NCBI RefSeq assembly: GCF_000011105.1
Contig: NC_000961.1
Location: 1,164,662-1,228,661 of the forward strand
From: Pyrococcus horikoshii OT3
GTDB lineage: Archaea > Methanobacteriota_B > Thermococci > Thermococcales > Thermococcaceae
DNA length: 64,000 nucleotides
Reading direction: 5' to 3'
Made by a program: the position numbers and the translations under genes. The first letter of the stretch is position 1; every line of letters begins with the position of its first letter. Positions 1 through 39,511 of the stretch are shown here, piece by piece. The notes beneath the pieces are model-generated. The model was not told where the DNA came from. It searched no databases and was given only the letters and a program-made list of their open reading frames with translations.

Positions 1-682
<682 letters not shown>

Positions 683-683
683 G

Positions 684-712
684 TTATTTTTCTCCTTTTC
701 CTTTCATTTTTA
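684..712 (+). terminator. T-rich terminator after gltPh
   Basis: Immediately after the gltPh stop the + strand holds several runs of four to five T separated by C-rich bases, the usual form of an intrinsic archaeal terminator. No hairpin is needed or seen. Confidence 0.5.
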
Positions 713-1349
713 TATGTAATACTTGGATCCAATTCTCTCCCCGATATGGGGCTTTTTAAAACGTTATCAAGTTTTATTGTAGGCGATAAATCCCTCTCTA
801 AACCAGCTGGGATAGGGAGCCAAGCTTTCTCCACATAGAGCCTCTCTCTTATACCTCTCCCAAAGATCATCTCTTTTTCGCTTTCCCCTTCTCCACCTCA
901 AGATACAAATACCATAGTAAATTCGAAGAGTTCTTCTTTACAAGTAGAAAAGCCAACTATCTCTCTTCGCTTTGAGAGAAAATTCACGAGCAATAGAAAT
1001 ATATTCTAACGGAGGATGAAGTAGTGGAGCTTCATCTATCAAATACTACTAACCCCACTTCAGCTAAGCTTCTTACTATCTTTAGATGCTTTTTCTGCTG
1101 AGGTTAGTTTCATATTAATAACCACTGGAACTTTCTCTCTAAGCGCGAGTTTAAAAATTTGAGCGTGATATTTCCTTTCCCTCGAAACGGATCACTAAGA
1201 GTGGATACCCTTATGGGAGTAATTGTCAAACCCTCCTTTATTAGACCACTAAGAGGCCTTTTGATAAGGGATGCCTTTGATGGGTTCCAGTTTATGAGAT
1301 ACCGAGCTACTGCAGGGACTGATTCTAAGTGAAATAATTGACAAGGCAA
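700..1349 (-). pseudogene. Radical SAM protein remnant (SPL/COG1533-like), multiple frameshifts
   Basis: Reading the minus strand, three consecutive frames give one continuous protein-like text. About 1349-1140 reads ...RVSTLSDPFRGKGNITLKFL; about 1149-1105 in the next frame reads LREKVPVVINMKL; about 1080-1022 in a third frame reads IVRSLAEVGLVVFDR. The order S-x-L-x-DPF, then K-x-PVVINxK, then LAExGLVxxxxS matches the core of spore-photolyase-like radical SAM proteins, but the N-terminal CxxxCxxC cluster is absent. Further frame-hopping text (for example GFSTCKEELFEFTMVF) continues down to about 700. No intact ORF remains. The family call is inference; the repeated frameshifts are seen directly. 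Confidence 0.45.
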
Positions 1350-1609
1350 GCTCTTTCGAGGGGAGCGGAAACTGGCACGAGAGGAAGTTCTTCCTGATGT
1401 ACGATTTAAGTAACGAGGAAGTCAAGGAATCGCTGAGAAAGGTGAAGCCCCTCGGCTTTAAGGGAGTTATCTACGCGACAACAGCTCCAAACTCTCTGAC
1501 CATGAAGCTCAACGAGCTTATAGAGGAGTGGCTTAAGAAGGATGCCTACTTCCGCCAGCTCAGGAGGATGAAGAAGGGGCCGTGCCTGAATATTGAGGGG
1601 TCTGGTTAG
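1298..1609 (+). pseudogene. Orphan C-terminal gene fragment (possibly DUF3783-like)
   Basis: Open frame of 103 codons beginning directly after a stop codon with no credible start; the only ATG lies at 1397, inside coding-looking text (ELLQGLILSEIIDKA... before it). Its body (DLSNEEVKESL, GFKGVIYATTAPNSL, LNELIEEWLKKDAYF) resembles short archaeal proteins of the DUF3783 type, in which a 'YATxTPxSL' strand precedes a Leu/Glu-rich helix; this family link is a guess. Its 5' end overlaps the 5' end of the radical SAM remnant on the other strand, so the junction looks like a rearrangement scar. Confidence 0.4.
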
Positions 1610-1612
1610 ATT

Positions 1613-1921
1613 TCAATTAGATTTCAAGGTGTATTCCTTCGGTTTTATAATTCTTATGAAGCTGTCGTTCCTCTTTTTGAATTCCTCTGGCTTGATGAGC
1701 ACGGGGCTTATTAGCTCTACGTACCTAAGAAGGACCTCTGTTACCAGCTCAATTACTCCCTCAAAATCAACCTCCCCAACTATCAGAACATCAATGTCGC
1801 TCTCCTTATCGTAGTCATCCCTGGCATAGGAACCGAACAAAAAGAGCCCCTCTATCGAGCTTCCAAAGCGTTCCTTTTAAAGCTTTAAAAACTCGTTAAG
1901 GGCCTGGGCCTTTTTGTCCAT
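1613..1921 (-). pseudogene. MNT-type nucleotidyltransferase (antitoxin-like), in-frame stop at codon 15
   Basis: A 102-residue minimal nucleotidyltransferase of the HEPN/MNT toxin-antitoxin class. It begins at ATG 1921 (MDKKAQALNEFLKL), meets TAA at 1879-1877, and continues in the same frame with KERFGSSIEGLFLFGSYARD then YDKESDIDVLIV. GSYAR plus the DxD pair is the catalytic signature of these enzymes, which AMPylate the HEPN partner. A Leu codon TTA changed to TAA would explain the stop. Translation could restart at TTG 1840 only at the cost of the first strand. The start lies inside the end of the HEPN gene (26 bp overlap), the usual operon layout. Confidence 0.8.
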
Positions 1922-2305
1922 TTTTAACCTCCTCCAGAACACTTTTAATTCTCTCCAGGAAGCGCTCAGCACTTTCAACAACGTTTTCAGCTTCCTCATA
2001 ACTTGGTTCGTAATAGACATCATAGTCAGCCTTTGATCTGAGCGAGAATGCGTAAGGTACTTTGCATAAACTCTTTCTATAAAGCCACTATTAACGAAGT
2101 GAAGGCCAAACATTCTAATAACTCCAGAGTGCTTCCTTGGGTCAATACCTTTCAAGAGAAGCAGAGCTTTGGCAGCATGGAACATTGAGTAGTATGCCCT
2201 GCTTATGGAATCTCTGAGCTTTCCGTTTTCCAGCAGGAGATACGCCGAAGAAAGTTCTTCCTCTGTGATTTTGATATGTTTTTCGACTTCTTCTGGAACA
2301 TCCAT
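1896..2305 (-). pseudogene. HEPN-domain toxin-like protein, single-base frameshift
   Basis: The gene starts at ATG 2305 and reads a HEPN four-helix protein (SRAYYSMFHAAKALLLLKG, then GIDPRKHSGVIRMFG). After YAKYLT near base 2055 the frame is lost. One base forward the text resumes as AFSLRSKADYDVYYEP and EEAENVVESAERFLERI, the expected family C-terminus, ending at TAA 1896-1898. Restoring one base gives about 136 aa, normal length for COG1895. The actual ORF instead runs through the partner's frame to 1877. HEPN proteins of this type are RNases held in check by the MNT partner encoded just downstream. Confidence 0.8.
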
Positions 2306-2420
2306 AATGTAACTCCCGACCTAATTTATGGCACACTCGATATTTAACCCTTCTCTCCCAGTATTATGCCCTCCGGTAGAAGGGGAATCTATAAATACCT
2401 GGAGATAGAAGGGAAGGAGA

Positions 2421-2834
2421 ATGGCAGGTTCCAGACCTCTCGGAGGTATCTTTGCCCTGTACGTCTTCATTGAGGTCCTTGTGGGATTCTAGGATGTTTT
2501 ATTGGGTCTATTCAGACCTGAATTTGACATTGAGTACTACAAAACAACAGAAGAGATCCAATCCGAGAAAGATTATTTGCTGAAGGGAATCCTCCTGACA
2601 TCGTTCGTGACATTGCCCTATTTTCTCCTGGGCAGTTTTAAGGCTCTTGAGAATCCACCAGATGATACTACTGGAACTGTCATTATTCTTTTGTTCTACC
2701 TCGGTGCCTGGGCGAGATTTGTACATAAGCTGTACCTCTGGAAAAAGCTGAACGATCGTTATAAGCATCTTCTTCTCCAGGAAGCAATCGCCAAGGGCGT
2801 TGAAATCGGCATGAAGAAAGCAAAAGAGGACTAA
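2421..2834 (+). pseudogene. Three-TM membrane protein with in-frame TAG at codon 24
   Basis: A purine-rich ribosome binding site (gggaaggaga) sits directly before ATG 2421. The frame reads MAGSRPLGGIFALYVFIEVL then VGF, stops at TAG 2490-2492, and goes on in the same frame for 114 codons (DVLLGLFRPEFDIEYYK...) to TAA 2834. A Trp codon TGG changed to TAG would restore a 137-residue protein with TM helices near residues 8-30, 50-70 and 82-100 and a charged C-terminal tail (GVEIGMKKAKED). If TTG 2502 is used instead, a shorter two-TM product is made without a ribosome binding site. Function not recognised. Confidence 0.6.
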
Positions 2835-3303
2835 TTCTTTCCATCAACCTTTTCAAACGGGTTGTAGATTCTAAGCCCCTCGATACCTTTAAAATCTCTA
2901 ACGCTTCTCGTCACGAGAGTATAGCCGTATCTCAGGGCCGTGGCCGCTATTACAGCATCGGGAGCTTTATGCTTTTCCTTCTCCTAAGCTCGATTGCGAG
3001 TTCGGCAATGTCATCCGTGAGAGGAATTACACGAGCAAAGCTTATGAACTCTCTTGACTTCTCAAAACCCTCCGAAGTGTGGCCCTTCCTTCCAAGGAAC
3101 TCTATCTTGGTGATTATGGAGATGTTGAAGTCCTCCTTTAGGATTTTCTCTATCCTGGGTATCTCATCCTCCGGAATGGCATCGGCGAGGTAGTATATGA
3201 GGATGTTGGTGTTTATCAGAAATCCCTCCCATTCCAATCTCAGCTCCCGAAGGCTCTTTTCGAGGTCTTTTTTCCTTTGTAAAAATCCCCTATACTTTGA
3301 CAC
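2831..3303 (-). pseudogene. VapC-like PIN-domain protein, single-base frameshift
   Basis: GTG 3303 opens a frame with a charged N-terminal stretch (KYRGFLQRKKDLEKSLREL) that resembles the toxin-binding tail of a VapB antitoxin, followed by the PIN core (FLINTNILIYYLAD, SIITKIEFLG). At about 2966 the frame ends early; one base forward it continues PDAVIAATALRYGYTLVT then RSVRDFKG and IYNPFEK, the normal VapC C-terminus, ending at TAG 2831. A lost G in CCGG explains the shift. The first catalytic position is Asn (INTN) where most PIN proteins have Asp. No separate VapB gene lies upstream. Its end overlaps the convergent membrane gene by 4 bp. Confidence 0.75.
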
Positions 3304-3336
3304 TTTAGCGATATAAAAATAAATTCAACATTTTAG

Positions 3337-3938
3337 TCACCTTAGTTTGTTATTTACCTCTTCTTTTGTTGTATAGTGGTGTGCTATGATGTAGTATAGG
3401 CTTCCGAGGAAGAGATAGGCCACTAAAATCGGGGGTGATGTGAGTAGGTTTATTGATGAGAGGGTGTATATTCCAAATAAGCCCAGGAGCCAGTGTTTTT
3501 TGGACTCTCAACTTTAATGATTAACACTACTCCTAGAGCTAGGATGAATACTCCAACTTTTAAGTCAAAGTTGGTAAGTGAAAAGGTTAGGGTGAATAAT
3601 AAAGTGTATAGCCTCCAAAGGTTCTTCTCAAAGTTGTCAAAGTAAGCGGGTATTAGGAACATTGAGGAAATTATAAAGCCAATAACTGAAGGGGGAATAC
3701 TATCCCTTACTAAATACAAGAGTAACGAGAGTGGGTAGAATGACGTTAAGAATGCCAAGCTTGATAAATGCCTCCTCCACCCATACCAGAGGAGGATTAA
3801 GGGGATTGACCCCAAGATAATGGGCGCGCCCACCTCTTGAACAGGCAGCGCCATTAAAACCGCCAAAGGCAACCACGCGAAAAACAACAAAAGAAGTACA
3901 GAAGGAGAAACACTAAAACCCCACCCCACCACGATCAC
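3337..3938 (-). pseudogene. Polytopic membrane protein, frameshift in an A-tract
   Basis: From a GTG start (3938, or an inner GTG near 3932) the frame encodes about six hydrophobic helices up to LIIKVESPKN near 3490. There the coding strand has a run of six A. With seven A the text continues KHWLLGLFGIYTLSSINLL then ILVAYLFLGSLYYIIAHHY and a charged tail ending at TGA 3337, giving about 200 aa. Without the extra base the ORF ends at 3450 after a hydrophilic, unnatural tail. It is the last gene of a minus-strand run (8969 to 3337) that includes proteins of similar length and topology. Function not recognised. Confidence 0.7.
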
Positions 3939-4021
3939 CCCTGGGTAGGAGTTCGTGTTTGAAGACTAGGTTAAAAATGAGAATAATAGGAAGATAGACA
4001 GTTAGAATATTATAAGGCCCG

Positions 4022-4552
4022 CTATAATTCATTTTCCTCACCTTGGTGTTTGAATTCTAGGGTGAAGTCTAGGATGTAGAGTCCCAGCAGTGCTAGAGCT
4101 TGAAGCCCGTAAATTGTGCGATAGTAGAGGACGAGGGTGAGGGGGAGGATAATCATTAAGAGCACGGGTCTCTTAATATCTTCCTTCAGCTTAAAATCAT
4201 AAGCTAAATCACTAATAAACCTCAACACCCTATCCATATAGAACAAGGGTAAAACCATCCACAAAAACCACAAAAGTGCGATAATACTCCCAAGGAATTC
4301 AAATGCCGTAATTACTGCGGCCATTGCGAGCCATATTGGGAAGAATAGTTTTGCCTCGAACTTGAACTTCTCTTTTTCAATCTCTTTATTAAACCACGCA
4401 CTCATAAGAGTGAATACGACAGAATAATAAAAATTAAGATGAAGTATAGGGTATGCATTCAAAGAATAATTATCCCCCGTAATGAACAATAAAATAAGGG
4501 AAACAAGACCAGCCAAAGTCATGGCAATTCGAAGTACTCCTCTAACCTGCAT
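4022..4552 (-). CDS. Polytopic membrane protein, 176 aa, unknown
   Basis: The frame is open from 4627, but ATG 4552 is the likely start because GGAGGAAAG precedes it by seven bases. The product has about five to six TM helices, the first being RIAMTLAGLVSLILLFI, and charged loops (EIEKEKFKFEAK, KLKEDIKRP). It is intact. It overlaps the end of the upstream split membrane gene by 11 bp, so the two are probably co-translated. No family recognised; size and topology are close to its neighbours at 3337-3938, 4542-5074 and 5357-5944, suggesting a set of related membrane subunits. Confidence 0.6.
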   Translation of the reverse strand: MQVRGVLRIAMTLAGLVSLILLFITGDNYSLNAYPILHLNFYYSVVFTLMSAWFNKEIEKEKFKFEAKLFFPIWLAMAAVITAFEFLGSIIALLWFLWMVLPLFYMDRVLRFISDLAYDFKLKEDIKRPVLLMIILPLTLVLYYRTIYGLQALALLGLYILDFTLEFKHQGEENEL

Positions 4553-5074
4553 TGTACTCTTTCCTCCTGTATTTAATTTCTTCAAGCTCTTTAATTTCCA
4601 TGTGGAGCCATAGGGTTGGGATTGCATATACTAACGCTAGTGGTGTTTTATACAGTATTACGAGGAGTAGTGAGGGTATGTATAAGGCTAGCGTACATAG
4701 TTTATTAGTAGTGTTACATGTCCTCTTGAAGAGTCCTGCCAGGAGAAGGCATCCCAAGAGGGCTAGGAATCCTATTTCAGGCTTTAAGAGTAGTAAGAGG
4801 CCTGAAAGTATCATGTAAGGAAAGGAGTATAATTCGCCTACCTAGTAATCCCAAAATAATGTTTCCTAATGCTTATTAGTGCTGTAAGGAGCCATAAGAG
4901 GAACGAGACTCCTATTGGCCACAACGCCTCAGTAGATTCAGTTTTTACAGCAAGATAGAACACTAATACTATTGCACTTAGAGAGGGAAAACTTCGCTTT
5001 GGCGAAGCTATAAAAGCCAGTAACCCAAGCACACTCCAAAAAATAATAGAAACAAATCCCAACCCATCTTTCAA
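4542..5074 (-). pseudogene. Membrane protein split into two ORFs (78 + 90 codons) by a probable 1-base deletion
   Basis: The first ORF (TTG 5074, preceded by GGAGTGGG) encodes three TM helices and ends HYFGITR-stop at 4838. Directly after, one base out of phase, text resumes as VGELYSFPYMILSGLLLLL and runs to TAG 4542 with three to four more helices. One extra G in the sequence ACTAGG would join them as ...GITRVGELYSF..., a 177-residue protein matching the 176-200 aa sizes of neighbouring membrane genes. The second ORF alone (ATG 4814) has no ribosome binding site. If both are really separate, they are two small three-TM proteins. Confidence 0.5.
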
Positions 5075-5092
5075 CCACCCACTCCACTCGAT

Positions 5093-5331
5093 CTATTTAC
5101 TCCCAACCAATCTACCCCCAAACCCAACCTCCTTAAGATTCAGGATAATAGTATCTAGACTTTTTAGTTCAAAACTAACCGTACAAGTAGAGAACAACAA
5201 CTCGTACTGCCCTCTACCTTGACCTCCTGACTGTCAATGCAAGGGTAAAGCTTAGGTTCGTGTGAATCCTGAGTGATAGGCCAATGGGGAGTAGAATTCC
5301 CTCCAAGGATTGCTGGAATTATACCCTTCAT
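5093..5331 (-). pseudogene. Decayed small ORF, two probable frameshifts
   Basis: ATG 5331 has a good ribosome binding site (GGGGTGA) and reads MKGIIPAILGG. One base on, the natural text is ILLPIGLSLRIHTNLSFTL then TVRRSR; a further base on it is RGQYELLFSTCTVSFELKSL then NLKEVGFGGRLVGSK, ending at TAG 5093. This would give a ~78-residue protein with one hydrophobic segment. The frame actually open from 5331 gives 55 residues of poor protein-like composition. Low confidence, but it sits in the operon gap between two membrane genes and fits the local pattern of single-base lesions. Confidence 0.35.
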
Positions 5332-5356
5332 TGAATTCACCCCAACTAACTGGCCT

Positions 5357-5944
5357 TTACGTTATTCTCGGCGGCCTCCACAATCTTGCAAGATCAAACT
5401 TAAGCCAGAGGATAAAAATCAAAATATACACTACAAGGAACGGCAACAATTCTTTCTGAAGTCCAAATTCTTCAATTAAACTACCGAAAGAGAGAACTAC
5501 CCACGGAATCTTAAGTAGGTAGAAGGCCTTTCTCTTCCCCCAGAGGAAGACTAGCCATAAGAGAAGGGAGCATGGCACGTAACCCATCATCAGCGAGAGG
5601 AACCATCCGAAGCTATATGACTTAAAGAGGAAAACGAGGAAAAACGATAGCAATAAAGCGAAGAGAATATCCTCAATTCCTTCATCATGTTTAGGTTCCG
5701 TTACTGGCTTTTCATATTCTTGGGCAAATAGGGCTGTAACAAGGAGGGAAGGAAGAATCCACCAGAAGATTGCTCCGAATACTGAGTGCCACATGTTGTA
5801 GAACACGCTGAAACCGGCTGTGAAAGTCGCTGAGAACACTAGCAGAACAAGAGTCCAGTGGAAAGACCTCCTACTCACTCCAATTATAACCCCCACAAAT
5901 AGAGTGGAATAAAGAAAAAGTGAGAGCTCCATTAATCCACTCAT
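5357..5944 (-). CDS. Polytopic membrane protein, 195 aa, unknown
   Basis: ATG 5944 follows the stop of the large secreted-protein gene by one base, with GGGGGAGG as ribosome binding site inside that gene's end, so the two are translationally linked. The product has about six TM helices in two groups separated by a hydrophilic loop (EYEKPVTEPKHDEGIED, about residues 76-92). The frame is intact. No conserved family is recognised. Being coupled to a giant extracellular protein, it is a candidate membrane anchor or export partner for it; this is inference. Confidence 0.65.
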   Translation of the reverse strand: MSGLMELSLFLYSTLFVGVIIGVSRRSFHWTLVLLVFSATFTAGFSVFYNMWHSVFGAIFWWILPSLLVTALFAQEYEKPVTEPKHDEGIEDILFALLLSFFLVFLFKSYSFGWFLSLMMGYVPCSLLLWLVFLWGKRKAFYLLKIPWVVLSFGSLIEEFGLQKELLPFLVVYILIFILWLKFDLARLWRPPRIT

Positions 5945-5945
5945 T

Positions 5946-8900
5946 CTATCCTCCCCCCACTCTTCCTAAAATACTCCTTAAAGCGGGCAAAAAGAATGAC
6001 TCAGTTGCCTTTAAAATTGCTTCCCCATACTTCCCCACTTTTGCAGCGGTTAGTATTCCTTTTAACGCCTTACCACCAATGATGAATGATCCGATGTCTG
6101 CTGGAATTGTAAGGTAGATTGTGTCGCTTGTTTTTACTTGGATTTGAGTTGAGATTTTGTACTTCTCGTATTTTGAGTATTCGAAATTATTACCCCTTGA
6201 CATTTTCAATTCAAATTCGATTGTTACTGGCAGGTGATAATAACCATGGAGCCAGTAACGTGCAAATGCCATGAAGTCCGAAGTCCAAGCTTCAAAGGTA
6301 ATATAAACATTCCCAGTCTCCCCAGCTTTGATCGTTGTAGTAGTATCCCGAGTTATCACCCCATTAGAATGATCCATTGGGAAGTCTATTGAGAGGACTC
6401 TCGATTCGTCTAACTCGATGGCAACCCCACTCCGAGTTGGATTTCTAAGCTCAACTACACACGTTGCCGTACCCTTGTAGTCAAGAGTTCCACCAACCTT
6501 CAAAACCAAATCATTACAAGACACTCTCGACAACTCTAGCCAATTAACCCTTCCCAAGACTTTAACATCCTCACTTGCCATTTGGCGCCCACCTATTCTT
6601 AGTATTAAGATCGTGTTTTGAGTTAAGGGTCCTATGGTTGCAGTTATTCTTGCAGTCTTGTTGGCGTAGATTGTCAAATATCCATTCGAGATTGAATAAT
6701 TAACACCGTAATAATCCTCATGAGGCCACCAAACGTTCCCAGTATCATCAACCAGCTCAATCGGCCACGTCTGCTTGTAATTCTCCGAATTCTTCACAGT
6801 AATGATAACGCTCACATTATTACCCGCCTCAACAGGATTTGGAACAACCTCAAGCCAAGCAGAAAGCCCATACTCTACCCAAGAAACGTTCAATTCTCCT
6901 TTCTTTTCTTCAACTTTTACTCCCTGATTGTAGAGCTTAATCTCATAAGAGTGCTCTCCACTCTCAGCACTCCACTGGAGGGTTAGGGTTTTAGTAGAGT
7001 CCGAGGGAATGTAAGCACTAGTGGAGTCAACTTCAACACCATCAATGAACAACTTTACGCTAACGCTCCTCCCACTAGAGTAGGAATTCCTAACCCCAAC
7101 CTTGAATGTAACAATCTCCCCAACCCTAGGCAAGTTTGGAGTTATCGTTACAGTAGTAATGCCTAGCGAGCCACTGGACTTTTTCCTTACAGTGAACTCG
7201 CCATCTACACTCTTAGAATGCTGTCCAAACTTACAAGTTAGCACGTAACTGTAAGTTCCAGGGCGAGAGTATGTAATCGAGCCAAAGTTGATTAAGGCGG
7301 TACCCTTACTCCCAGCGTTAAAGCTTTCAGACTTCTGGTAGACACTCCTACTCGCGCCTGAAGTTGGGACTTCAAGGCTGAGCGTACAAGACCCACTAAT
7401 CCCCACATCATTATCATTCCTCACGCGAGCCTTGAAGGTTAAGGCATTACCCTCCACAGGATCCCCATCAATGGAAAGTGAAATGCTAACCTTGCTAGGA
7501 TCAACTGGATCTTTCAAGCTTATTGTCTTTTCATAAGTTCTCTCAGTAGTCTTTGTAGTCATGCTTGAAGTTGCTTGAATGGCCATTGGAGCGTCTCCCC
7601 TATAAGACTTGTAAGTGATTTTTACTGTTCCAGTAACGGTAACGCTGTCACTCCCGTAAACCTTCTCACTAACGGTACTCTTAATCACCTTGACTTCATC
7701 TTTATCCAGCATGTCAACCTTTTCAGTATCCTCGAGCGAAGTCCCATCAAACTCAACGTTAATGTCGTAAACTGCATTATTTTGAGCCTCTACCTCTACC
7801 TCAACTTGATAAGTGGCGTACTCACTCGTGACTTCAACTGGATTTACGCGGACTGCCTTAATTACAAGAATCCCCTCACTCTCTCCAACTGTTAAAGCCT
7901 CCTGGGTTATTTGATCCTTTAATGGTAAGTTCATGCCTCCTGATGATTTTGGAAGAGCGAATATTGGCGGTTTTGGACGTGGGCCTATTGGTTCTCGTTC
8001 TATGTATTTCTTGCTACAGTAATATCCAGCCATTAATGCTCTTGCCAGTTCTACCACCTTGTGATTCAGGAGGTAATTTAGGTCTGGGTTAGAGTTTCCT
8101 AGCTTTTGGGCTTTCAATATTGACTCAACTTGTAATGTTAGGTTATAAGCCCTCAAAGCATCCCAACGATATACGCAGGTAAGTGTATCGAATGATATGT
8201 TTTCGATCATAACATATCCCCTGTTTCCTTCTGCATCCCTGTCAGCTAGTAACGTGTTTGACTCTATGATTTTGATTTCTTTCTCTTTTAACTGTTTAAT
8301 AGCAGAAAGTTCGCCATCTATATCCTGAGAGCGATATGCACGGTAGAATGTTACCCACTCTTTTTCGATAGTAGGAAGAATACTATTGTTAAACCAGATA
8401 TAACTACTAGGGAATAGAAAAGTGACATTTGACCAGTACTTTAACTCTAATGCCCTCGCTTCGTAACTGTTGTATTTAAATGCTACTCTTATGAATGCGT
8501 TTGAGAAGTCTGTTAGGAACTTGCTCATGTTAAAGTCTCCCTGAATTTCATCAGTATGCTCAATCAAGTACTGCTTGAATTTCTCGATTTCTTAATCACT
8601 CCAGCCTTCGTTTTTTAAGGCTTGAACTGTCTCTTGTGGGAGGCCTTTAGCCTTTATCTCCTCAATCATTTCCTTAAGCTCATCCTCAGTGTAGTACAAC
8701 TTGACTCCCGCTGATTCTAATTCTTGAAGGGTTTGCCAGGTTTGGGTTGAGATTATTATGGCATTCTCGGCTCCAGCCTTGGAATTCTCTATTAACTCGT
8801 TTATCGCTGTAATATTTCCAGATTCTGCCTCCTCAATGAGTTTTGCCTCCCTCCAAAGTATTTCCCAAAACTCCTTGTAAGGATCTTGAGTATCAGCTTG

Positions 8901-8969
8901 AACAATACTAGCATTAATTAGACTTCCCAATAATAAACTTATAACAAAAAATATAATACTTCTCCTCAT
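5946..8969 (-). pseudogene. Large secreted Ig-like/beta-sandwich protein cut by one in-frame TAA
   Basis: ATG 8969 (ribosome binding site GGTGACTT) starts a signal peptide (RRSIIFFVISLLLGSLINA) and a helical region ending LKNEGWSD. TAA at 8594-8592 interrupts, and the same frame continues EIEKFKQYLIEHTDEIQGDF for 881 codons to TAG 5946. The joined text WSD-[E]-EIEKFKQYL is smooth, so GAA changed to TAA is likely. The whole protein is about 1007 residues: a helical N-terminal domain with scattered Cys to about residue 320, then several Ig/CARDB-like repeats (for example KVGVRNSYSSGRSVSVKLF, SVIITVKNSENYKQTWPIE), and a weakly hydrophobic C-terminus ending GRVGGG. Restart at ATG 8528 (GGGAGA upstream) would give a product lacking the signal peptide. 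Confidence 0.75.
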
Positions 8970-9074
8970 TCTAAGTCACCAAATTTAACAATTTCAAATA
9001 GTACTTAAAAACATTATCCAATAAAAATCAAACACAATGACAAAACTAATCTAAAAATATATTTATCTTTGACA

Positions 9075-9088
9075 TTATTTTTATAAAC
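9075..9088 (+). promoter_or_regulatory. Probable TATA box for the methyltransferase pair
   Basis: An A/T block (TATTTTTATAAAC) lies about 25-30 bases before the expected transcript start of the gene beginning at 9128. A second A/T block (TAAAAATATATTTATC, 9052-9067) is an alternative. No operator symmetry is evident. Confidence 0.4.
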
Positions 9089-9127
9089 ATGGAAAAAGAT
9101 ATTACAGATTCGACAAGAGGTGAAAGC

Positions 9128-9919
9128 ATGAATCTTGAAGAACTCTATAAGTATCTTTATTGGCGAATGGATCCGAGCGATGAAAGAGCAATAAAAAGAT
9201 TTCAACAAATTATAGAGGTTTTTAAAAAGTTCAGAGATAGTGGATTAGTTCCTACAGAAGCAAAAATTCTCGATATATGTGCTGGAACAGGAATTGCTGG
9301 TGTTGCAATGGCCAAGGTAACAAAAGCTAAAACACTTACACTCCTCGATGCTCGAGAGAGCGATCTTAAGAAGAGTAAAGATTGGGTTAAAATAGCTGGT
9401 CTAGAGTTAAAGCCAAAATTGGTAGTTGGAGATGCTAGAAATGTTGCAGAACTTGTTGATGAACACGACGTTGCTATTCTCTGGGGCTTAACAATGCCCC
9501 ATTTTGATGCCTTTGATGCAGTGAAACTATTTGCTGGCGTTGCCTCAATTTTAAGTGAGGACGGAGTGTTTCTTTTGGAGGAATCTGACAGGGTCTACAG
9601 TATATTTTATAGAACTGGATACAAGGATATACTAGTAGAAACTAAAACAGACACATACACTCTAATTTCAATACACGATGGTTACGACCCGATTAGAGGA
9701 GTATTTAAGAGAACATACTACAAATTACCAGGCTTCGAGAAAATTACAGAGCAAGCCCACAGACTCTGGGACATAGCATCTCAACTTTCCCTTGGAAGTG
9801 TTTTCTTTAAAGAATACAAGGCTATAACTCCCAGTGAGCACGGGGTTATCGGAGTTTCAACTGTTCTATACTTTAGAAAGCCAAGGAAGAAAGTTGCCGA
9901 TGAAATTCTAAGGAGGTAA
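9128..9919 (+). CDS. SAM-dependent methyltransferase (class I)
   Basis: Predicted cytosolic methyltransferase, substrate unknown. Motif I is ILDICAGTGIAGVAMAK near residues 48-64, followed by an acidic strand end (LTLLDARESD) and the motif II/III region VVGDARN and VAILWGLTMPHF. Length 263 aa from ATG 9128, chosen because GAGGTGAAAGC precedes it; an upstream in-frame ATG at 9089 lacks a ribosome binding site. The next gene, another methyltransferase, starts four bases after its stop with its ribosome binding site on the stop codon, so they form an operon. Confidence 0.85.
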   Translation: MNLEELYKYLYWRMDPSDERAIKRFQQIIEVFKKFRDSGLVPTEAKILDICAGTGIAGVAMAKVTKAKTLTLLDARESDLKKSKDWVKIAGLELKPKLVVGDARNVAELVDEHDVAILWGLTMPHFDAFDAVKLFAGVASILSEDGVFLLEESDRVYSIFYRTGYKDILVETKTDTYTLISIHDGYDPIRGVFKRTYYKLPGFEKITEQAHRLWDIASQLSLGSVFFKEYKAITPSEHGVIGVSTVLYFRKPRKKVADEILRR

Positions 9920-9923
9920 AGCA

Positions 9924-10682
9924 ATGTACGAACTCTACACTCTCTTAGCTGAGTATTACGATACGATCTACAGAAGAAGAATTGAGAGGGTTAAAGCTGA
10001 GATAGACTTCGTTGAGGAGATATTTAAGGAAGATGCGAAAAGAGAAGTTAGGCGAGTTCTTGATCTTGCCTGTGGGACGGGAATTCCAACGCTTGAACTT
10101 GCAGAAAGAGGTTACGAAGTTGTAGGTTTAGACTTGCATGAGGAGATGCTTAGAGTTGCCAGGAGAAAGGCCAAAGAAAGGAACCTAAAAATTGAATTCC
10201 TTCAAGGTGATGTCCTTGAGATTGCATTTAAGAATGAATTTGATGCAGTCACTATGTTCTTTTCCACCATTATGTACTTTGATGAAGAGGATCTCAGAAA
10301 ACTCTTCAGTAAAGTTGCTGAAGCTCTCAAGCCTGGGGGAGTATTTATTACGGACTTTCCGTGTTGGTTCTATGGAGGAAGAGATGGCCCAGTAGTTTGG
10401 AACGAACAAAAAGGTGAAGAAAAGCTAGTAATTATGGACTGGCGAGAAGTAGAGCCAGCAGTTCAAAAGCTCCGATTCAAAAGACTTGTCCAAATACTCA
10501 GACCAAATGGGGAGGTAAAGGCATTTCTTGTTGATGATGAGCTTAACATCTACACTCCCAGAGAAGTAAGACTTTTAGCAGAAAAATACTTTGAAAAGGT
10601 CAAAATTTATGGGAATTTGAAAAGGGAACTTTCTCCCAATGATATGAGATATTGGATTGTTGGAATAGCGAAAAGTTTTTAA
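9924..10682 (+). CDS. SAM-dependent methyltransferase (PH1305-like)
   Basis: Class I methyltransferase of 252 aa. It has motif I VLDLACGTGIPTLELAERG (about residues 42-60), the acidic ribose-binding residue in VVGLDLHEEM, FLQGDVLEI, and the post-II strand FDAVTMFFSTIMYF with motif III LKPGGVFITDF. The family resembles ubiquinone/menaquinone-type and small-molecule methyltransferases; the substrate cannot be read from the sequence. I recognise it as the P. horikoshii protein of known structure usually called PH1305. Its last codons overlap the promoter of the 5S rRNA gene that follows. Confidence 0.88.
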   Translation: MYELYTLLAEYYDTIYRRRIERVKAEIDFVEEIFKEDAKREVRRVLDLACGTGIPTLELAERGYEVVGLDLHEEMLRVARRKAKERNLKIEFLQGDVLEIAFKNEFDAVTMFFSTIMYFDEEDLRKLFSKVAEALKPGGVFITDFPCWFYGGRDGPVVWNEQKGEEKLVIMDWREVEPAVQKLRFKRLVQILRPNGEVKAFLVDDELNIYTPREVRLLAEKYFEKVKIYGNLKRELSPNDMRYWIVGIAKSF

Positions 10683-10684
10683 AG
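10675..10684 (+). promoter_or_regulatory. TATA box of the 5S rRNA gene
   Basis: GTTTTTAAAG preceded by a purine-rich BRE (GCGAAAA) lies about 24-33 bases before the mature 5S 5' end, the normal archaeal spacing. It spans the stop codon of the upstream methyltransferase. Confidence 0.7.
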
Positions 10685-10707
10685 TGTTTGTGGGGAGTGG
10701 TTAGTGG

Positions 10708-10830
10708 TACGGCGGCCATAGCGGGGGGGTTACACCCGGTCTCATTTCGAACCCGGAAGTTAAGCCCCCCAGCGATCCCGGTTGTACTGCCCTCCGAGAG
10801 GGGGCGGGAAGCCGGGGACGCCGCCGGCCA
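10708..10830 (+). rRNA. rrf: 5S ribosomal RNA
   Basis: About 123 bases with the universal 5S core: CCCGGTCTCATTTCGAACCC for helix III/loop C, GGAAGTTAAGCC for loop B, a CCTCCGAGAGGGGGCGGGAA helix V/IV block, and terminal helix I formed by GGCGGC near 10711 with GCCGCC near 10820. It is isolated from any 16S or 23S gene, as is common in Thermococcales. The exact ends are uncertain by one or two bases. GC content is far above the flanking genes, as expected for a hyperthermophile stable RNA. Confidence 0.96.
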
Positions 10831-10921
10831 CCCTAATTCTCTTGAACAAAATGTCCAAATTCTTTAAATTTGTAAAGTTTTTATAGGGCAAATATTCAAC
10901 ACATAAACAGGTGAAAATGTG

Positions 10922-12610
10922 ATGACGTTCGATAAGGAGGTTTTAAAGAAGATTAAAGAGGAGGAAAAGCGTTGGGAAGAGACAACGGTAAAGAAGTTCT
11001 TAGAAAAAGCCCCTGAGAGAAAGGAGAAATTCATGACTGATGACGGGTTTGAGATTAAGAGGATATACACGCCAGCTGACTTAGGCGAAGACTGGAATTA
11101 CATGGAAAAGCTAGGATTCCCAGGAGAATATCCCTTCACGAGGGGAGTTTACGCAACGATGTACAGGGGCAGAATATGGACTATGAGACAGTACGCAGGC
11201 TACGCTACAGCAGAGGAGTCAAACAAGAGGTACAAGTACTTACTAAGCCAGGGGCAGACTGGGCTAAGCGTAGCCTTTGACTTACCAACTCAACTCGGTT
11301 ACGATTCAGATCATCCACTAGCCGAGGGTGAAGTGGGAAAGGTTGGTGTTGCAATAGACTCACTCTGGGATATGAGAATACTCTTCGATGGAATACCCCT
11401 TGACAAGGTTTCAACTTCCATGACGATTAACTCCACCGCGGCGAACCTATTGGCAATGTACATCCTAGTTGCCGAAGAGCAGGGAGTTTCCCAGGAAAAG
11501 CTTAGGGGTACCGTCCAAAATGACATTTTAAAGGAATACATTGCGAGGGGAACTTATATATTCCCACCACAGCCGAGTATGAGGCTCACAACTGATATAA
11601 TCATGTACTGTGCTGAAAACGTTCCAAAGTGGAATCCAATAAGCATTAGCGGTTACCACATTAGGGAAGCCGGAGCAAACGCTGTTCAGGAAGTTGCTTT
11701 CACGCTTGCAGATGGTATAGAGTACGTAAAAGCAGTTATCGAGAGAGGAATGGACGTTGACAAGTTCGCTCCAAGGTTGAGCTTCTTCTTTGCAGCGCAT
11801 AACAACTTCTTGGAGGAGATAGCAAAGTTCAGGGCTGCTAGAAGATTATGGGCTTACATAATGAAGGAGTGGTTTAACGCTAAGAATCCAAGGTCAATGA
11901 TGCTCAGGTTCCACACTCAGACAGCTGGTTCAACGCTAACAGCTCAACAACCAGAGAACAACATCGTTAGGGTTGCAATTCAAGCCTTAGCCGCGGTTCT
12001 AGGTGGGACGCAGAGCTTGCACACTAATAGTTACGATGAAGCATTATCCCTACCTACTGAGAAGAGCGTGAGGATAGCCCTTAGAACCCAACAGATCATA
12101 GCTTACGAAAGTGGGGTCGTCGATACCGTAGATCCCCTCGGTGGAGCCTATTATATCGAGTGGTTGACAGATCACATTTACGAGGAAGCCCTCAAGTACA
12201 TTGAGAAGATCCAGAAGATGGGAGGAATGATGAGGGCTATAGAGAGGGGTTACGTACAGAAGGAGATTGCAGAAGCAGCGTATAAGTATCAAAAGGAGAT
12301 TGAAGAGGGTAAGAGGATAATCGTTGGAGTGAATGCATTCGTGACCGACGAGCCAATAGAGGTTGAGATCCTAAAAGTTGATCCTAGCATCAGGGAGAAG
12401 CAGATAGAGAGGTTGAAGAAGTTAAGGAGTGAAAGGGATAACAAGAAGGTTCAGGAAGCCCTGGATAAGCTTAGGAATGCTGCGGAGAAGGAGGATGAAA
12501 ACTTAATGCCTTATATAATTGAAGCTCACAGACATTTAGCAACACTCCAAGAAGTTACGGATGTGCTAAGAGAAATATGGGGGGAATACAGGGCTCCGCT
12601 AATATTCTGA
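10922..12610 (+). CDS. mcmA: Methylmalonyl-CoA mutase, large (catalytic) subunit
   Basis: Interconverts methylmalonyl-CoA and succinyl-CoA with adenosylcobalamin. At 562 aa it is the catalytic TIM-barrel subunit without the C-terminal B12-binding domain, which archaea encode as a separate small protein; none lies nearby. Family motifs visible include [20 protein letters not shown] at the N-terminus, [52 protein letters not shown] and [23 protein letters not shown] 10922 has AGGTGAAAATGTG before it; the GTG three bases upstream is in frame but less likely. A TATA-like GTTTTTATAG lies at about 10876. It is transcribed after the 5S gene from its own promoter. Confidence 0.95.
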
Positions 12611-12660
12611 TTCCATTTTAATATTTTTAAATTAAAAGCTAAAGAGCAAAAACGAACTAA

Positions 12661-12837
<177 letters not shown>

Positions 12838-12900
12838 CTATGAGGGGATTTTTTAAACTTTGCCCATATACTTTTAACCATCTTGACTGGAGCTTAAAAT

Positions 12901-13197
12901 ATGGGTTATGATGAATATTTAACGGTAATTGTATTTGGAATAGGAATAACCCTTACCCTAATTTTTAAAAACTACGACTTCTTGATAATTCCATCACTTG
13001 GAATTCCAATAATTCTAGGTTATTTGGGAAGAAAGGAAAATATATTAGCAAAATCACAGATCTTTGAGAGGGATACAATATTAATGATAGCGTTAATTGC
13101 ATTCATAGTTGTCATACTCAACTACATGATAGACCCAAGGATTGGACTTTTAGTACTGGGTTTAATCATGCCAATAATTTTTGCAATTAAAGGGTAG
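12901..13197 (+). CDS. Small membrane protein, 98 aa, unknown
   Basis: The sequence holds four hydrophobic helices: LTVIVFGIGITLTLIF, LIIPSLGIPIILGYLG, ILMIALIAFIVVILNYM and IGLLVLGLIMPIIFAI, with a charged loop GRKENILAKSQIFERD in the middle. ATG 12901 has a weak GGAGC ahead of it and a TATA-like ATATACTTTT upstream. The stop overlaps the end of the convergent kinase-like gene by 11 bp. No family is recognised; it may be specific to Thermococcales. Confidence 0.6.
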   Translation: MGYDEYLTVIVFGIGITLTLIFKNYDFLIIPSLGIPIILGYLGRKENILAKSQIFERDTILMIALIAFIVVILNYMIDPRIGLLVLGLIMPIIFAIKG

Positions 13198-13846
13198 CTA
13201 TCAGCTCAAACACTTCCCTGGGATCTCCATTCCTCTTATAATACTTAAGGGCCTTTCTCATCTCCTCCCTAAAACTTTCAGTAATGTTAAATTTTTCAGA
13301 AATTCTTCTAGAGACAATGTTATTTCCGAGAAATAACATAGACATTGCTGAAGTTAGGTTCCTTGGCTTCCTGTTCATGCTAGCCTTTTCAAAATCGATT
13401 AGCCAAATATCATCTTTCCCCACGAGAATGTGCTTTCCACCCTGAATTTGTCCATGGTCAATTCCCAAGGTGTCAAGCTTGTACGTCTTCTCAGCTATCC
13501 TAAATAAATGATGCCTCTCGATATTTTCCACCTCCATTAAATGAAGGCCATTGAGATACTCTCGAACAAGCACTTCCCTATCATCTATCTTTCCGTATAG
13601 TATCAATTCACCTGTTATACCAGAACCTTTGAGGATCTCCAAGATCTTTGCTTCTTTTTCCAAATTTCTTCTCGGAGAATCGGGCCTTTGGTACTTTATT
13701 ATAACGTCACTTCCCCCAAATTCGCCTAAAAACACGAAACTTGTGGTACCCTTAGCTAGGAATTTTTTAACTTTAATTCTATACTTCCCTAGTTCCTTAT
13801 TTAATACCTCAATGCTCTTATTTATCACCCCTTCGATTGTCACCAC
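13187..13846 (-). CDS. Protein-kinase-like protein (RIO/COG2112 type)
   Basis: A 219-residue kinase-fold protein. It has a degenerate glycine loop (AKGTTSFVFLGEFGG, about 31-45), the ATP-orienting lysine in DVIIKYQRP, a catalytic-loop-like HGQIQGGKHILV, and IDFEKAS in place of the DFG segment. In the COG2112 family the HGx(L/I) and DFE forms are usual, so it is more likely an active atypical kinase or small-molecule kinase than a dead one; the substrate is unknown. The start is GTG 13846 with no clear ribosome binding site, possibly a leaderless mRNA; an inner GTG near 13828 is an alternative. Divergent from the aminotransferase gene. Confidence 0.7.
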   Translation of the reverse strand: MVTIEGVINKSIEVLNKELGKYRIKVKKFLAKGTTSFVFLGEFGGSDVIIKYQRPDSPRRNLEKEAKILEILKGSGITGELILYGKIDDREVLVREYLNGLHLMEVENIERHHLFRIAEKTYKLDTLGIDHGQIQGGKHILVGKDDIWLIDFEKASMNRKPRNLTSAMSMLFLGNNIVSRRISEKFNITESFREEMRKALKYYKRNGDPREVFELIATL

Positions 13847-13893
13847 CCTATTGTTTTTATACTTCCATAGGTATATAATTGTGGGTGGAGATT

Positions 13894-15045
13894 ATGGAGT
13901 TCGAAGAGGCATTTAAAGAAGTTTATGAGATGGTAAAGCCAAAATACAAGCTTTTTACAGCGGGGCCAGTTGCATGTTTCCCAGAAGTTTTAGAAATAAT
14001 GAAAGTTCAGATGTTCAGCCACAGATCTAAGGAATACAGGAAAGTTCACATGGACACCGTTGAGAGGTTGAGGGAGTTCCTTGAAGTTGAGAAAGGGGAA
14101 GTACTGCTTGTACCAAGCTCAGGAACCGGAATAATGGAAGCCAGCATAAGGAATGGAGTTAGTAAAGGAGGAAAGGTTCTTGTAACCATAATAGGAGCAT
14201 TTGGAAAGAGATACAAAGAGGTTGTCGAATCCAACGGTAGGAAAGCTGTTGTACTGGAGTATGAACCAGGAAAGGCTGTTAAACCCGAGGACCTAGATGA
14301 TGCATTGAGAAAGAATCCTGATGTTGAGGCCGTGACGATAACTTACAATGAAACTTCGACTGGAGTCCTGAACCCATTACCAGAGCTTGCAAAGGTTGCA
14401 AAAGAGCACGATAAGCTTGTATTCGTCGATGCAGTTTCAGCAATGGGAGGGGCCGATATAAAGTTCGACAAGTGGGGGTTAGACGTTGTATTCTCAAGTT
14501 CTCAAAAGGCCTTTGGAGTACCACCAGGATTGGCAATTGGTGCTTTCAGTGAGAGATTCCTTGAGATCGCTGAAAAAATGCCAGAGAGAGGATGGTACTT
14601 CGACATTCCTCTCTATGTAAAGTACCTAAAGGAGAAGGAATCAACACCTTCAACACCTCCGATGCCACAGGTATTTGGAATAAACGTTGCGCTGAGGATA
14701 ATTGAGAAGATGGGAGGAAAGGAAAAGTGGCTAGAAATGTACGAGAAGAGGGCTAAAATGGTTAGAGAAGGAGTCAGGGAGATAGGACTCGATATACTTG
14801 CGGAGCCGGGGCATGAAAGCCCAACTATTACCGCAGTACTCACTCCTCCTGGGATAAAGGGTGATGAGGTTTATGAAGCCATGAGAAAGAGAGGCTTTGA
14901 GCTAGCAAAGGGATACGGTAGCGTGAAAGAAAAGACCTTTAGAATTGGGCACATGGGATATATGAAGTTTGAAGACATCCAGGAGATGCTTGATAACTTG
15001 AGAGAAGTTATAAATGAATTAAAGAAGCAAAAGGGGATCAACTGA
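13894..15045 (+). CDS. Class V PLP aminotransferase (alanine/serine-glyoxylate type, PH1308-like)
   Basis: PLP enzyme of 383 aa in the alanine-glyoxylate/serine-pyruvate aminotransferase family. Visible elements are the N-terminal LFTAGPVACFPEVLE, PSSGTGIMEASIRN for phosphate binding, VTITYNETSTGVLNP, the PLP aspartate in FVDAVSAMGG, and the Schiff-base lysine in SSSQKAFGVPPGLA. The C-terminus has the carboxylate-binding arginine region TFRIGHMGY. I recognise it as the P. horikoshii protein of known structure PH1308. ATG 13894 is preferred over TTG 13879 because GGGTGGAG precedes it. Its end overlaps the convergent ATPase gene by 8 bp. Confidence 0.88.
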   Translation: MEFEEAFKEVYEMVKPKYKLFTAGPVACFPEVLEIMKVQMFSHRSKEYRKVHMDTVERLREFLEVEKGEVLLVPSSGTGIMEASIRNGVSKGGKVLVTIIGAFGKRYKEVVESNGRKAVVLEYEPGKAVKPEDLDDALRKNPDVEAVTITYNETSTGVLNPLPELAKVAKEHDKLVFVDAVSAMGGADIKFDKWGLDVVFSSSQKAFGVPPGLAIGAFSERFLEIAEKMPERGWYFDIPLYVKYLKEKESTPSTPPMPQVFGINVALRIIEKMGGKEKWLEMYEKRAKMVREGVREIGLDILAEPGHESPTITAVLTPPGIKGDEVYEAMRKRGFELAKGYGSVKEKTFRIGHMGYMKFEDIQEMLDNLREVINELKKQKGIN

Positions 15046-15619
15046 TTTTCTCAAGTTTTCCTTCTTTTATCTCATATATTGCATTAACCTTCCTTAGACC
15101 TGTTTTGATATCCCTATAAAGTTCAATTATCAGTTCAAATTTGCTCAAAACATCTTCATCTATTCTAAGCCAGTGCTTTATTTCCTCAAGGACATTTCTA
15201 GATAAGGAAAGTGACGTCACTATGAAACCATACCTGTCTATTAATCTCCTAAGTATCTTGGCAACATCCACCGTGTGTAGCGTATCTATAATAACATAGT
15301 CAGGATCTATCCTCGATATCTCGCTTATTACATCTTCAGTTCGTTGTCCCAGAGATCTCTCATCGAACTCTGTATTTATGACTCTTATGTTCTCTTTAAA
15401 AGGTTTAAACTCATTATAAGCTGTAATAACGGCTATTCTCCAGTTTTCGGGAATTAAGAATGTTAACGCCTCGATTAGCTTAGTTTTTCCAGTTCTTGTA
15501 CCTCCAACTATAACTATATCCTTTTTCTCCATTATGGCTTTCCTTAAGATATCAAGCTGCTCCTTCGTCACGGTTCCATACCTTAGTAGATCTTCAGGAG
15601 TGAAGATATAGACGCCCAT
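15038..15619 (-). CDS. Short VirB11/PilT-like secretion ATPase domain
   Basis: A 193-residue P-loop ATPase of the type II/IV secretion superfamily, holding only the C-terminal ATPase half. It starts with the helical cap TPEDLLRYGTVTKEQLDILR, then Walker A GGTRTGKTKLIEAL (about 39-52), an Asp-box-like EFDERSLGQRTEDV, Walker B DPDYVIIDTLH and a His-box-like segment YGFIVTSLSLS. The larger N-terminal domain that mounts VirB11/ArlI/PilB hexamers on their membrane partner is missing, and no TadC-like membrane gene is adjacent. ATG 15619 is preceded by AGGGTGC. Its role is unknown. Confidence 0.75.
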   Translation of the reverse strand: MGVYIFTPEDLLRYGTVTKEQLDILRKAIMEKKDIVIVGGTRTGKTKLIEALTFLIPENWRIAVITAYNEFKPFKENIRVINTEFDERSLGQRTEDVISEISRIDPDYVIIDTLHTVDVAKILRRLIDRYGFIVTSLSLSRNVLEEIKHWLRIDEDVLSKFELIIELYRDIKTGLRKVNAIYEIKEGKLEKIS

Positions 15620-15667
15620 TTAATGCACCCTGGAGATAACTTATCTTGAGATATTAAAGCGTTTACC

Positions 15668-16354: not shown

Positions 16355-16376
16355 TTCAACCCCCTTAGAAGGAGGC

Positions 16377-16454
16377 TGGCGGGCCGGGGGGGATTTGAAC
16401 CCCCGACCTGCGGATTAAGAGTCCGCCGCTCTAACCAGGCTAAGCTACCGGCCC
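16377..16454 (-). tRNA. tRNA-Lys (anticodon CUU)
   Basis: The minus strand reads GGGCCGGTAGCTTAGCC at the 5' end. The anticodon stem GCGGA/TCCGC encloses the loop CTCTTAA (anticodon CTT), followed by GGTTCAAATCC in the T arm and CCGGCCC-G-CCA at the 3' end. The acceptor stem pairs fully and CCA is encoded. Confidence 0.96.
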
Positions 16455-16483
16455 ATAACCCGATGTCTGATGAAATGAGAATT

Positions 16484-16495
16484 GCTTATAAGCTT
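16484..16495 (-). promoter_or_regulatory. Promoter of tRNA-Lys
   Basis: On the minus strand, CCGAAAAGCTTATAAGC supplies a BRE and a TATA box (GCTTATAAGC) about 30-40 bases before the tRNA 5' end. Confidence 0.65.
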
Positions 16496-16519
16496 TTCGG
16501 TAAGAGACTCCGCAGGGAC

Positions 16520-16927: not shown

Positions 16928-16979
16928 AATATCCCCAACAAAAATTATTAATACCCAATTATTTTTGTGAATTTTGACG

Positions 16980-17279: not shown

Positions 17280-17285
17280 TGCGAG

Positions 17286-17600: not shown

Positions 17601-17674
17601 AGCTTTTTGAAATAAGGGAACTTAACAACGGTAGGGAGGAGAGTAAAGGGATAATGGCAAATGATGAGGAAAAG

Positions 17675-18598: not shown

Positions 18599-18679
18599 GG
18601 TCAAAGAGTCGAGCGAGTCCTAAAAAGACTTTTCCTAAAATTTAAAAACCTAGAAGTTTAATAACAATAGGTGATTAAA

Positions 18680-19348: not shown

Positions 19349-19401
19349 CTTGAGGAAACTTTAAATCTTTTAAAATTTTATTCCAGGAATAGGTGACTCA
19401 A

Positions 19402-39510: not shown

Positions 39511-39511
39511 C

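What the first reader, a model, noticed from the sequence alone, without database searches (positions are those of the whole stretch)
5946..8969. Giant secreted protein cut by one TAA that separates signal peptide from ectodomain
Seen: residues 1-125 with signal peptide, TAA at 8594-8592, then 881 codons in the same frame with no break; WSD-stop-EIEKFKQYL reads as a GAA to TAA change. Without read-through the ectodomain would be made, if at all, as a leaderless cytosolic protein from 8528.
Basis: partly seen in the sequence, partly recalled or inferred. Interest (0 to 1): 0.6.

Follow-up and report, generated by a model that had tools for sequence, protein, structure and literature searches.

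The report
Stop-broken archaeal surface protein gene
A heat-loving archaeon carries a large secreted-protein gene cut by a single stop codon; relatives show it is a recently broken copy of a known, highly variable gene system (VARTIG), and the comparison strengthens the idea that the system makes interchangeable toxin-like tips, each matched to its own protective membrane protein.

Summary
A TAA at 8594-8592 (- strand) splits one frame into 125 codons with a signal peptide and 881 open codons. In 16 of 16 related copies aligned at the junction a sense codon stands there with no gap: one gene, one nonsense codon. It is the large 'head' gene of VARTIG, a hypervariable Thermococcales module published in 2021 (PMC8416519). 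Breakage is common: of 56 head genes not cut by a contig end, 31 are intact, 2 shortened in frame, 23 broken, in differing ways. No listed row of two control genes has an internal stop. This argues against programmed read-through; a base error in this one record stays possible. The other head of this genome is frameshifted. Beyond the finding: where membrane proteins encoded next to two C-terminal tips are alike, the tips are alike too (78 of 79 pairs; shuffles mean 6.4, maximum 17). Some tips look hydrophobic and glycine-zipper-like. Both fit a polymorphic membrane-toxin/immunity system. This gene itself is probably just a recent pseudogene.

The parts
5946..8969 (-). VARTIG head gene (arCOG07710-type large Ig-domain secreted protein), one frame interrupted by one stop codon
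   Evidence: family named from PMC8416519
8976..8980 (-). GGTGA, ribosome-binding-site-like, before the head start codon
   Evidence: read from sequence; function inferred
8892..8969 (-). signal-peptide-like N-terminus (about 26 residues)
   Evidence: sequence; one hydrophobic segment; no signal-peptide program was run
8595..8969 (-). first open piece, 125 codons
   Evidence: profile positions 6-138
8592..8594 (-). in-frame TAA; relatives have a sense codon here
5949..8591 (-). second open piece, 881 codons: rest of the N-terminal domain, Ig-like region (by homology), C-terminal tip
   Evidence: profile positions 140-1030
5949..6479 (-). hypervariable C-terminal tip (last 177 residues); outside this genome it matches L026, L098 and, as a remnant, L110
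5357..5944 (-). paired membrane protein, 195 aa, about 6 hydrophobic segments, starts 2 nt after the head; inferred immunity protein of this tip
4515..5081 (-). 567-bp stretch 97% identical to a stretch in the second VARTIG locus of the same genome (G000:C1:543417-543978); holds a broken membrane gene (pieces 4838-5074 and 4542-4814)
4022..4627 (-). membrane ORF of the VARTIG array (homologues in L028 and L035)
3450..3938 (-). membrane ORF of the VARTIG array (homologue in L038)

Best explanation
This is the head gene of a VARTIG module, recently inactivated by one nonsense codon. Shown: one continuous ancestral frame, a stop where relatives have a sense codon, and no more decay after the stop than before it. 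Inferred: translation starts normally and stops at codon 126, so only a short exported N-terminal fragment is made; the Ig-like region and tip are not exported, and if made at all from an internal start they stay in the cell. The second head copy of the genome is broken too, so no intact head was found in it. In intact relatives the head is most likely a secreted surface effector with a constant N-terminal domain, an Ig-like stalk and an exchangeable C-terminal tip; the membrane protein encoded directly downstream is the dedicated partner of that tip, most likely its immunity protein. I put the nonsense-allele reading at about 0.85 and the effector/immunity reading of the family at about 0.5.
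For: Junction: 16 of 16 aligned copies have a sense codon and no gap; 32 of 32 long heads have a residue there. At columns at least 95% conserved the window departs in 3 of 33 before and 4 of 33 after the stop. The genome's second head, about G000:C1:539758-542756, is frameshifted. Family-wide: 23 of 56 assessable heads broken (3 nonsense with three different codons, 17 frameshift or larger indel, 3 truncated or N-terminus lost), 2 shortened in frame, 31 intact; in genomes of 5 contigs or fewer 13 of 26 broken (hand tally). Controls: a 912-aa helicase is whole in one frame in 80 of 94 genomes and a 563-aa enzyme in 84 of 94; no listed row has an internal stop. Pairing: 31 of 31 intact and 16 of 17 tested broken heads are followed within 250 nt by a membrane ORF, against 36 of 400 random window places and 23 of 204 random places in the loci. 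78 of 79 membrane-similar pairs are tip-similar (shuffles mean 6.4, max 17); head versus orphan 42 of 42 (mean 3.5, max 10); 22 of 23 membrane families consistent, 16 with both head and orphan members. The window's tip and partner recur side by side in L026, L098 and, with a tip remnant, L110.
Against: One base decides the case and only one record of this genome was available, so a base error is not excluded. The window head departs at 7 of 66 conserved columns, more than most intact heads, though L029 (10 of 70) and L111 (10 of 69) depart more. No toxin domain above cut-off was found in the window's tip. The partner family also occurs without a whole tip: L095 and L079 have relatives of the 195-aa protein with at most a few tip-end residues before them by eye, and in L079 the partner is itself in two pieces. 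177 of 255 tip-similar pairs lack similar partners. A partner membrane protein could also be an anchor or receptor. The control genes are housekeeping-like, so they gauge sequencing error, not the normal decay of dispensable genes; the 14 and 10 genomes without a whole control gene were not examined.
Confidence: 0.78

Rival explanations
1. The TAA is a base error in the deposited genome sequence and the gene is intact in the organism.
For: A single base separates TAA from sense codons; the remaining 881 codons are open and undecayed. The genome is probably an old reference (size 1,738,505 recalled as that of Pyrococcus horikoshii OT3; no call confirmed it).
Against: 13 of 26 VARTIG heads in genomes of 5 contigs or fewer are broken (hand tally), while no listed row of two control genes has an internal stop, so breakage is a property of the family and not of sequencing in general. 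The second head in the same genome is also broken and a nearby membrane gene is broken in both loci.
Confidence: 0.13
2. The stop is read through (programmed recoding), so that a little full-length protein is made.
For: The frame stays open for 881 codons after the stop.
Against: No conserved stop in the family: the two other heads classed as nonsense have TGA (G059, profile 190) and TAG (G046, profile 52). TAA ends 21 of 49 ORFs tallied in the window. No TAA recoding is known to me in archaea (recalled). No recoding signal or suppressor tRNA was searched for.
Confidence: 0.03
3. The gene has become two working genes: a short secreted N-terminal protein and a cytosolic Ig-domain protein started at 8528 or 8567.
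For: An ATG at 8528 follows GGGAGA with suitable spacing.
Against: That ATG is the Met of the family's DFNM-type motif, so it is there for coding reasons. The split falls inside one conserved domain. A signal peptide and paired cysteines in the family argue for an extracellular role (PMC8416519).
Confidence: 0.03
4. The family is not an effector/immunity system but a self/nonself or adhesion marker; the membrane partner is an anchor or presenter of the tip.
For: The authors of PMC8416519 list this among three hypotheses and read a hydrophobic end with DNNxxxGG as a possible sorting signal. An anchor would also co-vary with its tip.
Against: Partners fall into many groups not alike at E 1e-6: 23 shared plus 12 unique among 80 pairs, which fits immunity better than anchoring. 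Tip-partner pairs without signal peptide and stalk are kept in tandem arrays.
Confidence: 0.35

Closest known systems
VARTIG module, head protein arCOG07710 (Makarova et al. 2021, PMC8416519)
   Same: Large secreted Ig-type head as first gene of a co-directed array, constant N-terminal domain, hypervariable C-terminus, small membrane proteins downstream; the paper itself notes pseudogene fragments. The paper calls it unique to Thermococcales; here relatives outside the family were limited to weak matches to the Ig-like part in three genomes and one contig filed as Helicobacteraceae.
   Different: This head carries an internal TAA. No orphan Ig cassette was found in this array, the tip ends in GGG without the DNNxxxGG motif, and a stretch is shared with the second locus of the same genome.
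Polymorphic toxin systems (CDI, Rhs, MafB type; recalled, and as compared in PMC8416519)
   Same: Constant export/stalk part, exchangeable C-terminal tip, orphan tips with partners in tandem, one specific partner per tip.
   Different: No toxin domain above cut-off in the ten tips scanned; partners are polytopic membrane proteins; no killing has been shown.
Glycine-zipper / class II bacteriocin-like peptides (Pfam PF13488, PF05433, PF10439)
   Same: Five of ten scanned tips (L027, L105, L107, L108, L101) match glycine-zipper families; two pass Pfam gathering scores (L108 PF13488 26.5 vs 25; L101 PF05433 26.3 vs 24.2).
   Different: The ten tips were picked by eye from 48, partly for glycine-rich ends, and such matches are prone to composition. 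Bacteriocin_IIc stays below its cut-off (best E 0.0032). The window's own tip has no such match.

Membership tests
VARTIG head (arCOG07710) | Large protein homologous to the family along its length | tested here: met
   The two pieces match profile positions 6-138 and 140-1030 of 1054; alignment.
VARTIG head (arCOG07710) | One uninterrupted coding sequence | tested here: not met
   TAA at 8594-8592: a broken member, not a working one.
VARTIG head (arCOG07710) | First gene of a co-directed array of small membrane-protein genes | tested here: met
   ORFs 5357-5944, 4022-4627, 3450-3938, all - strand, with 6, 5 and 4 hydrophobic segments.
VARTIG head (arCOG07710) | Smaller Ig proteins homologous to the C-terminus encoded downstream | tested here: not met
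   None in window 1-20000. Of the 16 other 20-kb loci, 13 have them clearly, L038 weakly, L041 and L042 not. The paper allows islands of a single gene.
VARTIG head (arCOG07710) | Several Ig-fold domains in the C-terminal half | tested here: inconclusive
   No Pfam match above cut-off, no PDB sequence match; inferred from homology to the published family.
VARTIG head (arCOG07710) | Hypervariable C-terminus | tested here: met
   Over all 124 fetched loci the last 177 residues match, outside this genome, only L026, L098 and weakly L110.
Polymorphic toxin system | Tip-specific partner gene directly downstream | tested here: met
   78 of 79 membrane-similar pairs also tip-similar; shuffles mean 6.4, max 17.
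Polymorphic toxin system | Recognisable toxin domain in the tip | tested here: inconclusive
   Ten of 48 head tips scanned with Pfam: glycine-zipper families in five, none in the window's tip.
Polymorphic toxin system | Toxicity of the tip and protection by the partner | not testable with these tools
   Needs experiment.

The most novel reading that the evidence does not exclude
VARTIG is an archaeal polymorphic membrane-toxin system. Exchangeable hydrophobic, sometimes glycine-zipper, tips on Ig stalks attack the membranes of competing Thermococcales, and each tip travels with its own membrane immunity protein. The head is lost so often (half of heads in near-closed genomes) because the weapon is costly, while its immunity genes stay useful and can outlive their tips. 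The window is one such weapon caught soon after loss, its partner gene still open.
Probability: 0.4. Interest if true: 0.72.

Novelty: new member of a known kind. Interest (0 to 1): 0.38.

Why it matters
The stop itself is an ordinary pseudogene event. What the check adds is a test of an open question: the authors of VARTIG named the lack of any identifiable toxin as the main caveat to the toxin hypothesis (PMC8416519, Discussion). The tip-to-partner co-variation found here is what an immunity system predicts, and the glycine-zipper tips suggest a membrane target for some of them. It also cautions that many VARTIG heads in public genomes are not coded whole, so experiments should choose intact loci.

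Tried and rejected
Programmed recoding: rejected, because lesions differ in place and kind across the family. Slippage-based phase variation: most breaks looked to lie outside long runs; a few (L043, L084, L090) lie in short A-runs and one of L031 at a T-run, by eye, so it is not formally excluded. A shared break hot spot: L091 and L092 break at the same profile place (152-153), and L040, L084, L096 near 188-199; I did not test these for common descent. 'The partner is kept after the head dies' as evidence of selection: 16 of 17 partners are open, but single-lesion heads are recent and partners are short, so this is weak; L110 and L095 hold open relatives of the window's partner behind a reduced tip, L079 a split one.

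One search covered all 124 fetched loci and added L110, L095, L079 and L098.

Tools that gave little: Pfam and NCBIfam on the pieces (no match above cut-off for either piece of the head), PDB sequences (none), viral contigs (none), AlphaFold of the N-terminal domain without an alignment (mean pLDDT 46.7, helical, not used). One genome-contig scan gave one relative, L026.

Rows set aside: of 66 head places, 10 cut by a contig or record end (L100, the second head in L028, L068, L082, L083, L087, L089, L093, L099, L039/L113) were left out of the tally, which was made by hand. 'Intact' means one open frame of at least 850 aa from the start of the profile. One search was given 17 of the 23 broken heads; L042, L043, L088, L092, L094 and L097 were not put in, nor the shortened L085 and L098. 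Searches used 80 tips (48 labelled head, 32 orphan) whose frame was at least 300 nt, reached profile position 850, ended in a stop and had a membrane ORF within 150 nt. Partners without a whole tip, and tips without a partner, were dropped by that rule, so the counts do not say how often either stands alone. The head label of the last piece of L081 and the tip of L095 (a frame ending early) are uncertain. L098 was outside the rule and checked afterwards.

Full report
Observation. On the minus strand an ATG at 8969 starts 125 codons with a signal-peptide-like beginning; a TAA stands at 8594-8592; 881 further codons follow in the same frame to the stop at 5948-5946. By base composition an 881-codon run without a stop has a probability of about 5e-27.

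One gene, not two. The piece after the stop was searched in 41 genomes; 17, the own one included, have a match. In 16 of 16 related copies aligned at the junction a sense codon stands at the stop without a gap, in the context W-[S/T/N]-[D/E]-x-[E/Q/D]-[I/V]. In a second alignment, of 32 long open heads, the residue is E in 22, D in 6, S in 2, N in 1 and T in 1. At columns at least 95% conserved the window departs in 3 of 33 before the stop and 4 of 33 after it. Most intact heads depart in 0-2 of about 33 on each side, but L029 shows 8 of 35 after and L111 6 of 36 before. The part after the stop has not decayed more than the part before it, so the lesion is probably recent.

Which family. The relatives form the VARTIG module of Thermococcales, described by Makarova, Wolf, Karamycheva and Koonin (PMC8416519; I saw the abstract, Results parts 1 and 2 of 3, the Discussion and found passages). 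The head (arCOG07710) is a large Ig-domain protein at the 5' end of an array of small, mostly membrane, proteins; its C-terminus is hypervariable. The paper says several head genes appear to be fragments of pseudogenes. Its main text has the word horikoshii only in a reference title; figures and supplements were not seen, so I cannot say whether this locus was listed. That the genome is P. horikoshii OT3 is recalled from its size; no call confirmed it. The search term VARTIG returned six papers, of which two (PMC8416519 and the editorial PMC10112665, seen in the listing only) seem by title to concern this system; arCOG07710 returned one.

How common breakage is. With the conserved N-terminal domain of ten intact heads (A1) I searched the 94 genomes held for the family: 51 have a match. 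I took the head loci and scored all frames with a profile of 32 long heads. Of 66 head places 10 are cut by contig or record ends. Of the other 56, 31 are intact, 2 are open but shortened in frame (L085, L098) and 23 are broken: 3 by nonsense (window TAA at profile 139; G059 TGA at 190; G046 TAG at 52, perhaps with a later frameshift), 17 by frameshifts or larger indels, some with several lesions, and 3 truncated or without the N-terminus (L080, L042, L101) (tallied by hand). In genomes of at most 5 contigs 13 of 26 are broken. As controls, a 912-aa helicase is whole in one frame in 80 of 94 genomes and a 563-aa enzyme in 84 of 94 (88 have a match); no listed row has an internal stop, but the list was cut at its end and the remaining genomes, mostly drafts with partial matches, were not examined. 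Sequencing error is therefore not the usual cause of broken heads, though it stays possible for this single base. The other head of the same genome (in L041) is frameshifted.

Tip and partner. Two nucleotides after the window head starts a 195-aa membrane ORF. Relatives of it were sought in all 124 fetched loci. In L026 and L098 it directly follows a tip homologous to the window's. In L110 it follows a tip remnant (E 5e-5). In L095 and L079 only a few residues resembling the tip's end precede it, by eye, and in L079 it is in two pieces. Generalised: 31 of 31 intact heads and 16 of 17 tested broken heads have a membrane ORF within 250 nt, against 36 of 400 random places in the window and 23 of 204 in the loci. 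Among 80 tip-partner pairs, 79 cross-locus pairs have similar membrane proteins and 78 of these have similar tips; shuffled labels give a mean of 6.4 and at most 17 (with class-wise shuffling mean 6.5, max 15). Between heads and orphans it is 42 of 42 (mean 3.5, max 10). These are 23 membrane families with two or more loci, 22 of them fully consistent and 16 with both head and orphan members, plus 12 unique ones; related genomes are among them, so 23 is nearer the number of independent cases than 79. The reverse holds less strictly: of 255 tip-similar pairs 177 lack similar partners, 68 of these at 60 bits or more and 16 at 120 or more.

What tips might do. The last 80 residues hold the most hydrophobic stretch beyond residue 300 in 25 of 32 heads (31 intact and the window's), and 9 of 32 reach a transmembrane-like score against 0 of 32 bodies. 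Ten tips, picked by eye partly for glycine-rich ends out of 48, were scanned with Pfam: five match glycine-zipper families, two of them above the cut-off, three match nothing, one (L039) gives a weak unrelated match, and the window's gives only a weak match to a delta-endotoxin C-terminal domain below its cut-off (E 0.078), which I do not count. The window's tail is only moderately hydrophobic (1.24). So a membrane target is a hypothesis for part of the family, not a result for this gene. The authors read the same hydrophobic ends as a possible sorting signal.

Within-genome exchange. Window 4515-5081 is 97% identical over 567 bp to G000:C1:543417-543978, in the second VARTIG locus of the genome. 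Both copies hold a broken version of a membrane gene of about 175 codons that is whole in other genomes; both lack the same internal stretch, and a 5-nt difference distinguishes them. The paper saw no exchange between loci of one genome, speaking of the tip region; this is such an exchange in a membrane gene.

Verdict. A real, probably recent nonsense allele of a known hypervariable archaeal head gene, most probably non-functional; ordinary in itself. The comparison gives new support for a toxin/immunity-like logic in VARTIG.

Noticed in passing
window 4515-5081 and G000:C1:543417-543978: 567-bp stretch 97% identical between the two VARTIG loci of one genome, each holding the same broken membrane gene; the published account saw no within-genome exchange of the tip region.
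   Followed up: partly
L098 oriented 1731-2390 (G093): A 220-aa open gene fuses the family's signal peptide and first 90 or so residues directly to a distal tip related to the window's, followed by a relative of the window's membrane partner: a natural mini-head.
   Followed up: partly
L110 5883-6683, L095 oriented 5973-6542, L079 oriented 5272-5837: Relatives of the window's 195-aa partner standing behind a reduced tip or almost none; partners may outlive their tips.
   Followed up: partly
L028 8144-9968 and L036 13941-15759: 1.8 kb of VARTIG array 97% identical between two species (G007 and G003); other listed stretches shared by that pair of loci are 81-91% identical.
   Followed up: no
L026 (contig JALUKO010000395.1): A 6.3-kb contig filed under a Helicobacteraceae metagenome bin carries VARTIG cassettes, one with an in-frame TAG at 3976; probably a mis-binned Thermococcales contig.
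   Followed up: no
window 1616-2305 (- strand): Two small adjacent ORFs look by eye like a nucleotidyltransferase/HEPN toxin-antitoxin pair (recalled motif, not tested); a weak PIN-domain match lies at 2950-3303 (below cut-off).
   Followed up: no
window 28153-46319: Near an Lhr-like helicase gene lie large proteins, including one with DUF2341 (43854-46319) and one with carboxypeptidase-regulatory/Ig-like matches (28153-29694).
   Followed up: no
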